Shown here: piece by piece, positions 37,507 to 43,241 of the stretch
Layout of the letters: each line of letters opens with the position of its first letter
Numbering within the stretch: position 1 is the stretch's first letter
NCBI GenBank assembly: GCA_903824785.1
Contig: CAIJYD010000022.1
Span: 19,597-83,596 of the forward strand
Origin: an uncultured Bacteroidota bacterium
GTDB lineage: Bacteria > Bacteroidota > Bacteroidia > Bacteroidales > VadinHA17
DNA length: 64,000 nucleotides
Direction of reading: 5' to 3'
The notes under the pieces: model-generated
Told to the model about the DNA's origin: nothing
Databases searched by the model: none
What the model saw: only the letters and a program-made list of their open reading frames with translations
Translations under genes and position numbers: made by a program

Positions 37507-37542
37507 AAAAATGAAGACAAACTATTCATTTTCGAAGATAAA
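37507..37542 (+). promoter_or_regulatory. 36-bp upstream motif, copy B (candidate enhancer/UAS)
   Basis: aaaaatgaagacaaactattcattttcgaagataaa; 32/36 identical to 30956..30991. Confidence 0.6.
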
Positions 37543-37612
37543 ACTTTCGTTCAGATCTACCGGCTCAAACAAATATTTACTAAAGCGTTGTAAATCAGGT
37601 AGATATAAATTT

Positions 37613-37628
37613 TGGCACACAAATTGAT
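37613..37628 (+). promoter_or_regulatory. Sigma54-like promoter TGGCACacaaaTTGAT
   Basis: Same TGGCAC-N5-TTGAT architecture as 31053..31068; upstream of DUF4402 gene. Confidence 0.5.
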
Positions 37629-37706
37629 TAGTATATGTCAGAAATCAATTATTAAACGAAAATTAATTAAAATCAAAAACAATAATAACTAAAAACAAAA
37701 ACAAAA

Positions 37707-38252
37707 ATGAAAAAAACAATTATTCTTTTCGCAGCTGTCTTAATGATAGCAGGTTTTTCAACCAAAGCAATTGCACAGACATCCGCAACAGTAACAGGAA
37801 CAACAGCAGGAGCCCAGCTGATTATCCCAATGGCAATTGGCCAGGATTCTCCATTACATTTTGGAACAATAAATTTAGTTGCAGGAGTTGGTGGTACAGT
37901 TGTTCTTTCAACAGTAAATGCAGCACGCTCTTTCACAGGCGGTGTTGTAGCATCTGCCGTAACACCGTTAGCTACAAATGCAGCTTACCATGTTACCGGA
38001 ACTAAAAATGAATCTTATGCACTCACCCTTCCAGCTACTATTACAGTAACTGAAACTGTAGGAAATTCAGCAAGCATGGTAATCAGCGATCTGAAAGCCC
38101 GTTTCCTTGGAGCCGCTGATGACGCAGTAATAAGTACTCTTAGTGCAACCGGAACTGACAGCTTTACTGTTGGTGGTACACTGACTGTTTCACCATCACA
38201 GGTTGGTGGAATTTATGCAGGTGCGTTTAATGTTACTGTAGATTATAACTAA
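37707..38252 (+). CDS. DUF4402 domain protein, candidate pilin/major subunit
   Basis: Signal peptide; MAIGQDSPLHFGTI...GGTVVLST...SFTVGGTLTVSPSQVGGIYAGAFNVTVDYN. Confidence 0.85.
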   Translation: MKKTIILFAAVLMIAGFSTKAIAQTSATVTGTTAGAQLIIPMAIGQDSPLHFGTINLVAGVGGTVVLSTVNAARSFTGGVVASAVTPLATNAAYHVTGTKNESYALTLPATITVTETVGNSASMVISDLKARFLGAADDAVISTLSATGTDSFTVGGTLTVSPSQVGGIYAGAFNVTVDYN

Positions 38253-39686: not shown

Positions 39687-39717
39687 CCAGAGGAAAGAGA
39701 AAAAAACAAAAGAACAA

Positions 39718-40239
39718 ATGAAAGCATTGCACGGAAATATAAGGAGTCAGAGATTGTTACTGACAGTCGCATTCCTCTTCATTTGTATCAGCTTCTCATT
39801 TTCGCAACCAACATTACCACAACGGTCATTAACCGTAACTGCTACTCAACCAATACATTTCGGTACATTTTGTTTAACAGGAGGAGCCGGTGGTTCGGTT
39901 ACTGTAGGTTATGACGGCAGCAGAACGGCAATCGGGAATATTGTGCTTTTGCCAATTTCTCCCATTGCTCAGCCTGCAATCTTTGAAATTAAACTTTGTG
40001 AAGGCAGGAATGTAACTATCACTTTTTCTGCAACTACAATTCTAACCGGAAGTGACGGCGGTTCGCTTACACTTGAGATAGGGCCTACAGAAAAAGGATT
40101 GAACGGAGGAACATTTGCTACTAACAACGATTGTAATTTTGTCACGACTTTACGGGTAGGAGGCACTCTTCAGATCCCCGGAAATTCCATCCCCGGAACA
40201 TATACAGGAAGCTTCGATATGACCTTTAACCAGGAATAA
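39718..40239 (+). CDS. DUF4402 domain protein, candidate minor pilin/tip
   Basis: IHFGTFCLTGGAGGSVTVGYDGSRTAIGNIVLLP...GGTLQIPGNSIPGTYTGSFDMTFNQE. Confidence 0.82.
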   Translation: MKALHGNIRSQRLLLTVAFLFICISFSFSQPTLPQRSLTVTATQPIHFGTFCLTGGAGGSVTVGYDGSRTAIGNIVLLPISPIAQPAIFEIKLCEGRNVTITFSATTILTGSDGGSLTLEIGPTEKGLNGGTFATNNDCNFVTTLRVGGTLQIPGNSIPGTYTGSFDMTFNQE

Positions 40240-43200
40240 TGATCACGCTCAATTACGTCGGTAGAGTTAAAAAATACTGCATGCTTATTGGGCATCTCCG
40301 GTTCGCGTCACAGCTTAAAACATCATTACTTCTGTTTATTTTGCTTTTCCCCACACTGCTTAAGGTAAATGGGCAGGATGTCAATACGGAAGAAAATATA
40401 AATAATTCTGCTATTTACGACCAGATTCCTGTCAGTGTTATGATTGAAGGGGTCGGAACTTTCACTGTCGATGTTTTATATACCAGTAATGATCTGCTCT
40501 ACATTAATATTGAAGACCTGTTCAATAATCTGAAGATTCCCTGCAAAACGGCGAAAAATGGTGAGAGTTTTAATGGTTTTATTGAAAATGAAAGCAAAAC
40601 TTATTCTATAGAATTCAATTCAGGAGTAATAAAAGTCGGCGACAGAATAATTAATTATAAAAACGGGCTTATAAAAGAGGCAGGCTCCTTCTATTTGGAA
40701 TCTTCATTGTTTGCAGAAGCTTTCGGAATTAACCTCTCCTTTAATTTCAGAACTCTTTCAGTAATCTTAAAATCGAATTTTGAGTTGCCGGTGGTTAAGC
40801 AACTCAGAATCGAAAAAATGGAAAAAAATATTTCGAAGTTAAAAGGCGATATTATTTCAGATACAATTATAAAAAGAAACTATCATTTATTTAAGGCAGG
40901 CACATTAGACTGGGCAGCAGCCTCCTTTCAGACATGGAATGGGACAACTGATAATCGTCTTGGACTTGGCATCGGAACCGAATTTCTGTACGGAGAAGCT
41001 GACGTATCAGTTAATTATTACGATCAGTATAAATTTGATAACCGGCAGCTCCAGTACCTCTGGCGCTGGGTTGACAATGATAAACGCATTATTAAACAGG
41101 CACAGGTTGGAAAGATATCCAATCAGACTATCGCATTTATTAATTCACCTGTACTTGGTGCCGTTATCAGAAATTCTCCGACAACTGTAAGAAAAGCTAA
41201 AGGGTTCTACACAATAAATGAATTTACTGAGCCCAACTGGACTGTAGAGCTTTATATAAATAACATCCTTGTTGACTATACAAGGGCCGATGCTTCGGGT
41301 TTGTTTTTATTCAAAGTTCCGATTGTGTATGGCTTTACTACCCTGAAACTAAAATTTTACGGTCCGATGGGAGAAGAACGTACCGAAGAACGTACGATGA
41401 ATGTTCCTTATACAATTATGCCGGTTAAGCAGTTTGAATACAGCCTGGCAGGCGGTATCGTTCAGGATACAACTCACAGCCGGTTCGGGAAAACGGAGTT
41501 CAATTATGGGGTAAACCGCATTTTAACAATTGGCGGAGGATTGGAGTACTTATCTTCAATTACAAACGGAGATTTAATTCCTTATGGGAGAATTACTATG
41601 CAGCCATTCAGCGCTTTGACATTGAACGCAGAATATTCTCACGGAGTTAAAAGCAGAGTGTTGCTTGACTATTATTTTATCAAAGATGCTTTATTAGAAC
41701 TGGATTATGCGAAATATGTAGAAGGACAACTTGCTACACGCTTCAATTCTCTTGAAGAAAGGAAAGCAAAACTGTCTATCCCATTCAGATTCAAAAAGAT
41801 TATAGGATTTACAAAGCTTGATTATATGCAATATGTATATAAAACCTTTAATTATAATCAGGTTGCAGCAATGATTTCAGCGTATTACAAGCAGTTTAGC
41901 GCCAATTCATCATCACAGCTCAACTGGTTAAACGGGAAACCGGCATTTCTTACCTCCGACCTGGCACTTTCTTATCGGCTGAAGAATGGATTTAATCTGC
42001 GCTCATCAGCCCAGTTTAATGTTGCTGGTGGCAAAATGATCAGGTATAAGGCAGAAGTCGAAAAAAGAATTCCAAAAGGTTTTATTTCAGGTTCATACGA
42101 AAGAAATGTCCTCTTTAAAGATAATTTTGTAACTCTGAATTTCAAGTACGATTTGAATTTTGCACGAACAAGTGTCTCGGCTTCACACAATAATGGTAAT
42201 TTCTATACCTCCCAAAGCGCCCAGGGAAGTATGGCCTTTGGCAGCGGTAATGGGTATGTTTATAAAAGCAATAACTCATCAATAAGCAAAGGCGGAATAT
42301 CTGTCTATCCATTCTATGATGCAAACAATAATGGGGTCTTCGACAAAGACGAACACATGGTGAAATTGAATACAGTAAAAATATTCGGTGGAAAAACAAT
42401 TTTCAGCAAACAGGATTCAATAATACGTATTGCCGATCTCAATGCATTTGTAACTTATAATATGGAATTCAGCGACATCGATCTGGAGAATTTCTCATGG
42501 CGCTTTAAAACTAAAAAGTATCAGGTGCTTATTGATCCAAATCAGTTTAAAAGAATTGATGTGCCAGTTATTACTGTAGGAGAGGTTAGCGGGATGACAT
42601 ATATTGACGGTGAAAATACATTAAAGGGAATTGGAAGGATTCTTGTAAAATTCTATAAAAAAGATAGTGATAAACCTGTAGCAGAAGCACTTTCTGAATC
42701 TGACGGATATCTATATTATATGGGGTTTGAACCAGGAGAGTATGTTGCCCGCATTGATTCGGCTCAGTTGAGCAACCTTAACTTTTCTGCTGATCCCATG
42801 CAGGCCTCTTTTAAAATAAATGCTCTGAAAGATGGAGATATTATTGAAGGCCTTAGTTTCGTCCTCAGCCCGATATCAATGATTGCAGAACAGAAAACTG
42901 ATTCTGCCGATCTTAATGCCTTGGGTCTTAATGTCAGCGAATCGGAAGTATCAGAAAAAAACCGGGGAAAAGAAACGGTTGTTTATATGGGCAATCTTGA
43001 TCTGAATGCAGGTCCTTATTTTGTACAGGTTGGTGCTTTCAGAAAAGAGGATAATGCAAAACGGCTTTATAAGAAACTCTCGGTCGGAATACAATATCCC
43101 ATAGGAGTAATTATTGAAGATGGTTACTACAAAGTGCGGTTAGGATATTTCAGTTCAAAAGAAGGCTCTGCTGCCTGCTCAAAAGTAGTATTAAGACGAG

Positions 43201-43241
43201 GACTTCCCTTATTCCGGGGAAGGAACCGAAAACAGCCATAA
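40239..43241 (+). CDS. Outer-membrane usher-like protein with C-terminal SPOR domain
   Basis: 1000 aa; TVELYINNILVDYTRADASGLFLFKVPIVYGFTTLKLKFYGPMGEERTEERTMNVPYTIMPVKQFEYSLAGG usher-like segment; C-terminal GPYFVQVGAFRKEDNAKRLYKKL...YYKVRLGYFSSKEGSAACSK SPOR. Confidence 0.78.
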   Translation: MITLNYVGRVKKYCMLIGHLRFASQLKTSLLLFILLFPTLLKVNGQDVNTEENINNSAIYDQIPVSVMIEGVGTFTVDVLYTSNDLLYINIEDLFNNLKIPCKTAKNGESFNGFIENESKTYSIEFNSGVIKVGDRIINYKNGLIKEAGSFYLESSLFAEAFGINLSFNFRTLSVILKSNFELPVVKQLRIEKMEKNISKLKGDIISDTIIKRNYHLFKAGTLDWAAASFQTWNGTTDNRLGLGIGTEFLYGEADVSVNYYDQYKFDNRQLQYLWRWVDNDKRIIKQAQVGKISNQTIAFINSPVLGAVIRNSPTTVRKAKGFYTINEFTEPNWTVELYINNILVDYTRADASGLFLFKVPIVYGFTTLKLKFYGPMGEERTEERTMNVPYTIMPVKQFEYSLAGGIVQDTTHSRFGKTEFNYGVNRILTIGGGLEYLSSITNGDLIPYGRITMQPFSALTLNAEYSHGVKSRVLLDYYFIKDALLELDYAKYVEGQLATRFNSLEERKAKLSIPFRFKKIIGFTKLDYMQYVYKTFNYNQVAAMISAYYKQFSANSSSQLNWLNGKPAFLTSDLALSYRLKNGFNLRSSAQFNVAGGKMIRYKAEVEKRIPKGFISGSYERNVLFKDNFVTLNFKYDLNFARTSVSASHNNGNFYTSQSAQGSMAFGSGNGYVYKSNNSSISKGGISVYPFYDANNNGVFDKDEHMVKLNTVKIFGGKTIFSKQDSIIRIADLNAFVTYNMEFSDIDLENFSWRFKTKKYQVLIDPNQFKRIDVPVITVGEVSGMTYIDGENTLKGIGRILVKFYKKDSDKPVAEALSESDGYLYYMGFEPGEYVARIDSAQLSNLNFSADPMQASFKINALKDGDIIEGLSFVLSPISMIAEQKTDSADLNALGLNVSESEVSEKNRGKETVVYMGNLDLNAGPYFVQVGAFRKEDNAKRLYKKLSVGIQYPIGVIIEDGYYKVRLGYFSSKEGSAACSKVVLRRGLPLFRGRNRKQP

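What the first reader, a model, noticed from the sequence alone, without database searches (positions are those of the whole stretch)
37507..43241. Bacteroidota chaperone-usher-like fimbrial operon built from DUF4402 subunits and a SPOR-fused usher
Seen: one strand carries DUF4402 protein, PapD-like chaperone (TPKRVVFEG; LAPGEPQVIML; LSIPIII), an 81-aa ORF, a second DUF4402 protein, and a 1000-aa usher-like protein. Established: chaperone-usher pili need a periplasmic chaperone, an OM usher and donor-strand-exchanging pilins; SPOR domains bind denuded peptidoglycan. Inference: this is a complete secretion-assembly system in a phylum better known for Mfa/Fim type V pili, with DUF4402 proteins as the fibre subunits.
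Basis: partly seen in the sequence, partly recalled or inferred. Interest (0 to 1): 0.85.

Follow-up and report, generated by a model that had tools for sequence, protein, structure and literature searches.

The report
Hidden chaperone-usher pilus system of Bacteroidota
This stretch carries a complete machine for building hair-like surface fibres, of a kind known from Proteobacteria but too diverged here for the standard family models to recognise, and in marine relatives the same machine is encoded together with parts resembling the flagellar rotary motor.

Summary
37707-43241 encodes DUF4402-A, a chaperone (true start about 38570), an unrelated phage-like 81-aa ORF, DUF4402-B and a SPOR-tailed usher. 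Neither Pfam nor NCBIfam calls the window's chaperone or usher, but: the usher's AlphaFold2 model has 6 + plug + 18 = 24 barrel strands and its 19 best PDB matches are all FimD/PapC (E down to 1e-26); wide family profiles align with E. coli K-12 ushers and chaperones (hhalign 94-95%); the DUF4402-A model's 31 best PDB hits are all chaperone-usher pilins. The order DUF4402 - chaperone - DUF4402 - usher recurs in about 60 of 80 Bacteroidota loci. So A is probably the shaft and B the tip. The SPOR domain is optional. In Balneolaceae relatives the operon continues with FliG-like, TPR, MotA-like and MotB-like genes (13 of 13 loci); ushers there have either SPOR or the motor genes next door, never both. 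The window's genome has no FliG. No fibre has been observed, and DUF4402 is in no paper held.

The parts
37707..38252 (+). DUF4402-A: predicted major fibre subunit; Sec signal peptide, then N-terminal extension (about aa 24-42) and beta-sandwich (aa 43-180)
   Evidence: PF14352 E 5.4e-20; AF2 mean pLDDT 92; best 31 PDB matches all chaperone-usher pilins; extension and alternation
38268..38309 (+). terminator-like hairpin plus T run between DUF4402-A and the chaperone; candidate attenuator giving excess major subunit
   Evidence: -20.6 kcal/mol stem in the window; comparable element after DUF4402-A in 34 of 61 loci versus 14/63 after chaperone, 10/75 after DUF4402-B, 5/74 after usher
38570..39397 (+). 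periplasmic PapD-like two-domain chaperone, 275 aa with signal peptide (the ORF is open from 38348)
   Evidence: start by homologue alignment; profile-profile match to 11 K-12 chaperones, probability 94.1, E 1.2e-7, 168 columns; weak PapD_N hits in 13 of 39 relatives, best 0.0039
39441..39686 (+). 81-aa ORF, probably an unrelated insertion; not part of the system
   Evidence: no relative in 80 loci; phrog_16354 E 1.6e-5
39718..40239 (+). DUF4402-B: second subunit, without N-terminal extension; predicted tip or first subunit
   Evidence: PF14352 E 3.9e-20; mature Q to FG distance 18 versus 28 in DUF4402-A
40239..43241 (+). outer-membrane usher with C-terminal SPOR domain
   Evidence: AF2 and Foldseek; profile match to K-12 ushers; relative L087 hits PF00577 at 2.1e-14
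40419..40775 (+). usher N-terminal periplasmic domain (model residues 48-166)
40890..42236 (+). usher 24-strand barrel (model residues 205-653)
   Evidence: DSSP strands, counted by hand
41175..41417 (+). usher plug domain, inserted between barrel strands 6 and 7 (model residues about 300-380)
42288..42872 (+). usher C-terminal domains (SdrD_B / carboxypeptidase-regulatory-like)
43008..43190 (+). SPOR domain, predicted peptidoglycan anchor of the usher
   Evidence: PF05036 E 7e-11; PDB 1x60 match
31494..37409 (+). 1971-aa PATR beta-repeat protein with a tail like T9SS sorting type C; associated neighbour, possibly a co-displayed adhesin
   Evidence: PF12951, weak NF033708 tail; only two PATR genes in the genome; similar proteins in 39 of 80 loci, in some between chaperone and DUF4402-B

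Best explanation
The genes encode a chaperone-usher fibre-assembly pathway that belongs to a diverged branch found in Bacteroidota and Balneolaceae. Subunits enter the periplasm by Sec (signal peptides visible). The PapD-like chaperone lends a strand to the incomplete Ig-like DUF4402 subunits (inferred). The usher, with N-terminal domain, 24-strand pore, plug and C-terminal domains (shown on the model), receives chaperone-subunit complexes and lets the N-terminal extension of each incoming DUF4402-A replace the chaperone strand in the subunit before it (inferred). DUF4402-B has no extension and so could only sit first, at the tip. DUF4402-A is the repeating shaft; the hairpin behind its gene would make it the most abundant product. 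The SPOR domain anchors the usher to peptidoglycan at its periplasmic side (inferred from the known role of SPOR).
For: Usher model: pLDDT 83, 6 + plug + 18 strands; Foldseek best 19 hits FimD/PapC, E 1.3e-26 to 1.8e-9, about 900 columns in the full-length matches, the next barrel family (LptD) only 5e-7; hhalign family versus K-12 ushers 94.6%, E 7.3e-8, 655 columns, control LptD no match; relative L087 passes the Pfam Usher cut-off, E 2.1e-14. Chaperone: hhalign 94.1%, E 1.2e-7, mismatched controls 12.6% and 0.4%; Pro91 aligns with the proline reported as invariant in the chaperone superfamily. Pilin: best 31 PDB hits all chaperone-usher pilins, Caf1 first at 6e-4; extension 24-34 residues in A (56 loci) versus 17-23 in B (71 loci); A-x-A-x-[ILV] alternation, 100% hydrophobic or small at three alternate positions in 58 sequences. 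Gene order conserved. Attenuator-like hairpin.
Against: The window's chaperone and usher hit no chaperone or usher model in Pfam or NCBIfam directly. TM-scores are modest (usher 0.39/0.48; pilin about 0.35-0.48), so the structural claim rests on the specificity of the ranking. DUF4402 versus K-12 pilins by profile is only 19%. A single FimD sequence against the usher profile gives only 3.6%; the 94.6% needs six K-12 ushers. No structure was predicted for the chaperone or DUF4402-B, and no complex. No fibre has been seen. The tip role of DUF4402-B rests on length alone.
Confidence: 0.9

Rival explanations
1. A usher-like pore and chaperone secrete DUF4402 proteins as monomers or as a loose capsule-like coat, not as a defined pilus with shaft and tip.
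For: Closest solved pilin is Caf1, which forms a capsule of thin flexible fibres (Caf1 biology from own knowledge). No dedicated two-domain adhesin is in the operon.
Against: DUF4402-A keeps the N-terminal extension needed for polymerisation; A and B differ exactly in that feature.
Confidence: 0.25
2. A type V (Mfa/Fim-type) pilus or another T9SS/lipoprotein-based Bacteroidota appendage.
For: The phylum is known for these, and a T9SS-tailed PATR protein lies next door.
Against: No fimbrillin/Mfa family match; mature subunits begin at a Sec-type A-Q site, without a lipobox Cys; a usher and chaperone are present.
Confidence: 0.03
3. DUF4402-B is not the tip but a usher-bound starter or an accessory that never enters the fibre (a rival to one step of the best explanation, not to the whole).
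For: It lies directly upstream of the usher in 74 loci, and no receptor-binding domain is visible in its 170 aa.
Against: It is a full DUF4402 domain like A; fibre tips of known systems also lack the extension (own knowledge).
Confidence: 0.35

Closest known systems
Classical chaperone-usher pathway (E. coli Fim/Pap: FimC/FimD/FimA)
   Same: usher architecture with 24 strands and plug after strand 6; chaperone and usher align by profile; a hairpin after the first subunit gene in many loci
   Different: not recognised by Pfam/NCBIfam; subunits are DUF4402, not the Fimbrial family; usher carries SdrD_B/carboxypeptidase-like C-terminal domains and SPOR; chaperone has the T-G-N motif instead of N-P-T-P
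[quoted passage not shown]
   Same: DUF4402-A fold also matches CfaB; chaperone shares the T-G-N motif with EcpB/EcpE and has a conserved strand-F Arg and a domain-2 Tyr that could be the subunit-carboxylate anchor reported for CsuC/EcpB
   Different: anchor residues assigned by alignment only; archaic systems are reported from Proteobacteria, Cyanobacteria and Deinococcus-Thermus (PMC4654587; PMC10104325), not Bacteroidota; profile match to EcpC is not significant
Type V (Mfa1/FimA) pili of Bacteroidota
   Same: donor-strand fibres in the same phylum
   Different: no family match, no lipoprotein subunits, usher and chaperone present
Flagellar motor (FliG, MotA, MotB), for the Balneolaceae version only
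   Same: FliG middle and C-terminal domains, MotA and MotB homologous; MotB channel Asp kept
   Different: FliG part sits behind a signal peptide, periplasmic region and TM; encoded in a chaperone-usher operon; many of these genomes have no FlhA

Membership tests
Chaperone-usher pathway | outer-membrane usher: N-terminal domain, 24-strand barrel with plug between strands 6 and 7, C-terminal domains | tested here: met
   (predicted model)
Chaperone-usher pathway | sequence homology of the usher to known ushers | tested here: met
   family profile versus K-12 ushers and relative L087 at 2.1e-14 to PF00577; the window protein alone does not hit PF00577
Chaperone-usher pathway | two-domain PapD-like periplasmic chaperone | tested here: met
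   (profile), controls 127, 128; Pro91 aligned with the superfamily-invariant Pro; no structure predicted
Chaperone-usher pathway | pilin with Ig-like fold | tested here: met
   DUF4402-A; sequence profile alone 19%
Chaperone-usher pathway | N-terminal donor-strand extension on the polymerising subunit | tested here: met
Chaperone-usher pathway | donor-strand complementation and exchange between chaperone and subunits | not testable with these tools
   no multimer prediction available
Chaperone-usher pathway | fibre on the cell surface dependent on usher and chaperone | not testable with these tools
   needs experiment
Archaic/alternative (non-classical) chaperone class | conserved strand-F1 Arg and domain-2 Tyr anchoring the subunit C-terminus | tested here: inconclusive
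   Arg120 (or the residue two further on, Arg in the Balneolaceae clade) and Tyr227 are candidates by alignment
Type V pili | fimbrillin/Mfa family domains and lipoprotein subunits | tested here: not met
   no such family; no lipobox Cys at the mature start
SPOR-domain proteins | SPOR domain above the curated cut-off | tested here: met
   42.7 bits versus cut-off 21
SPOR-domain proteins | binding to denuded peptidoglycan | not testable with these tools
   needs experiment

The most novel reading that the evidence does not exclude
The family includes a powered form: in Balneolaceae and one further family the usher operon runs on into a FliG-like rotor protein (with signal peptide, periplasmic region and TM), a TPR lipoprotein, MotA-like and MotB-like proteins, so a chaperone-usher fibre would be turned or driven by an ion-powered rotary motor. 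Ushers without these genes mostly carry their own SPOR anchor, as in the window. The window's own system would be the unpowered, directly peptidoglycan-anchored form.
Probability: 0.4. Interest if true: 0.95.

Novelty: new variant of a known kind. Interest (0 to 1): 0.77.

Why it matters
It would extend chaperone-usher fibres to Bacteroidota, where thousands of homologues now go by 'hypothetical protein' and DUF4402, and would give DUF4402 a function. It supplies profiles and a testable shaft/tip assignment. If the motor link in Balneolaceae holds, an assembly system so far known as energy-independent at the outer membrane would have a relative with a dedicated ion-driven rotary motor.

Tried and rejected
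Direct Pfam, NCBIfam and PDB sequence searches for usher or chaperone failed; wider profiles were needed. DUF4402 versus K-12 pilins by profile: weak. DUF4402-A against viral structures: nothing. Usher versus EcpC: not significant. A first idea that Arg31 equals PapD/FimC Arg8 was dropped because the distant clade lacks it. The 81-aa ORF as an operon member: rejected. The 825-aa gene downstream as an operon member: rejected, no homologue in the 80 loci. FliF-like identity of the region before the FliG part: only weak (YscJ_FliF_C in 8 of 24, best 0.03; no match to FliF), so kept as a lead.
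Full report
What is there. On the + strand, 37707-43241 holds DUF4402-A (181 aa), a chaperone ORF, an 81-aa ORF, DUF4402-B (173 aa) and a 1000-aa protein. Both DUF4402 assignments and the SPOR domain are well above cut-off. Alignment of 39 homologues puts the chaperone start at the internal ATG 38570, giving signal peptide plus AQ|GDLLITP. The chaperone and the large protein match no chaperone or usher model in Pfam or NCBIfam, and the whole genome has no Pfam Usher match, so routine annotation misses the system.

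The usher. With a 65-sequence alignment AlphaFold2 gives a mean pLDDT of 83. Counting the strands printed: an N-terminal beta-rich domain, six long strands, a plug-like insertion at about 300-380, eighteen further long strands (24 in all), two C-terminal beta domains, a disordered linker and the SPOR fold. Foldseek against the PDB lists 19 FimD or PapC chains first (1.3e-26 to 1.8e-9; about 900 columns for full-length chains), ahead of any other outer-membrane barrel (LptD 5e-7). TM-scores are only 0.39/0.48, which a multi-domain protein with free domain orientation may explain, but I could not test that. A family profile including distant relatives aligns with six K-12 ushers over 655 columns (94.6%, E 7.3e-8). 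FimD alone gives a collinear but insignificant match (3.6%), and LptD alone gives nothing. The distant relative L087 itself passes the Pfam Usher cut-off (2.1e-14).

The chaperone. The family has 3984 homologues found by search. A profile of 34 members aligns with 11 K-12 chaperones across both domains (94.1%, E 1.2e-7); mismatched controls give 12.6% and 0.4%. Pro91, invariant in the family, falls on the proline described as invariant in the chaperone superfamily (PMC4654587). A T-G-N motif shared with EcpB and EcpE, and conserved Arg120 and Tyr227, make the non-classical (archaic/alternative) type more likely than the classical one; this is alignment-based and inconclusive.

The subunits. 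The DUF4402-A model is confident (pLDDT 92): a beta-sandwich from residue 43, with no strand assigned before it. Its first 31 PDB matches are all chaperone-usher pilins: Caf1, CfaB, HdaB, DraD, the PapG pilin domain, FimF and PapA among them (best E 6.1e-4). The mature protein has 24-34 residues before the conserved F-G in 56 loci, against 17-23 in DUF4402-B in 71 loci, without overlap. In the extra stretch three alternate positions are hydrophobic or small in 100% of 58 sequences, while the positions just before the first and just before the third are so in only 7% and 10%, as expected of a donor strand. A subunit without it can accept but not donate, hence the proposal that B is the tip and A the shaft. 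A hairpin with a T run follows DUF4402-A in the window (-20.6 kcal/mol) and in 34 of 61 loci, clearly more often than after the other genes (14/63, 10/75, 5/74). That Fim/Pap-type operons also have a hairpin behind the major subunit gene is from own knowledge.

Distribution. The search for related loci returned 80 loci in Bacteroidales, Flavobacterium, Lutibacter, Polaribacter and others. A DUF4402 gene directly precedes the chaperone in 61 and the usher in 74; several of the missing cases are contig ends. In the search of 200 genomes of the phylum, 33 (own included) have usher matches at about E 1e-80 or better. The 81-aa ORF and the 825-aa gene downstream are not conserved. 44 of 71 ushers of that set with a located C-terminus have SPOR; 25 stop soon after the C-terminal domains. 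One relative has an OmpA domain. A PATR beta-repeat protein with a T9SS-like tail lies near or inside the operon in 39 of 80 loci; the window's upstream neighbour is one of only two PATR genes in its genome.

A motor in the relatives. In the Balneolaceae clade (names; lineage) the operon is DUF4402 genes - chaperone - usher - FliG-like - TPR lipoprotein - MotA-like - MotB-like in 13 of 13 loci examined, one of them (L129) from another family and with a shorter MotB. FliG homology is solid (PDB FliG chains at 2e-20; K-12 FliG 94%; FliG domains in 24 of 24 members), as are MotA (PF01618 1.6e-18) and MotB (OmpA 8.6e-15, SPOR 2.8e-11, MotB_plug 9.6e-7). The channel Asp of MotB is kept in all 17 sequences. 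Ten of the 14 genomes with an usher-linked FliG lack FlhA, so in those it is not part of a flagellum. Among 27 ushers of the distant set, the 14 next to FliG end in a TPR-like tail and none has SPOR; of the other 13, ten have SPOR by my profile and an eleventh (L086) by Pfam. These genomes are related, so the split is not a set of independent events. A second FliG-MotA-MotB locus without usher exists in some of the same genomes (L135-L138), so the motor module is not exclusive to the fibre. Co-function is inferred from operon structure alone. The window's genome has neither FliG nor FlhA.

Novelty. Papers in the library place archaic systems in Proteobacteria, Cyanobacteria and Deinococcus-Thermus and classical ones in beta/gamma-Proteobacteria. 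DUF4402 or PF14352 occurs in no paper held, and the hits for chaperone-usher together with FliG/MotA/MotB or rotary motor, judged by title and abstract, do not describe such a link. The library lacks most subscription papers, so earlier notice elsewhere is possible. I rate it a new variant of a known kind: the working principle is known; the branch, its subunit family, the peptidoglycan anchor on the usher and the motor-linked form are not described in what I could search.

Noticed in passing
L122-L134 (Balneolaceae and one other family), for example L126:8012-13019: FliG-like fusion, TPR lipoprotein, MotA-like and MotB-like genes directly downstream of the usher in 13 of 13 loci; mutually exclusive with a SPOR domain on the usher.
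   Followed up: partly
L135-L138: A second FliG - about 360 aa - TPR - MotA - MotB locus without chaperone or usher in Balneolaceae; function unknown.
   Followed up: partly
window 31494-37409: 1971-aa PATR beta-repeat protein with T9SS-like tail just upstream; one of only two PATR genes in the genome, and similar proteins lie near or inside the operon in 39 of 80 loci.
   Followed up: partly
window 39441-39686: 81-aa ORF resembling small phage proteins of unknown function (phrog_16354) sits between chaperone and DUF4402-B; no relative at that place in the 80 loci.
   Followed up: yes
L123-L125, L128, L130, L131: Two further conserved genes upstream of the DUF4402 array in Balneolaceae: about 130 aa of unknown family and a DUF4900/bactofilin-like protein.
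   Followed up: no
distant chaperones of alignment A5 (L085-L112): Twelve members weakly match WxLIP_PGBD (best 1.8e-5), the domain of Gram-positive WxL-interacting proteins, hinting at a wider chaperone-like superfamily.
   Followed up: no
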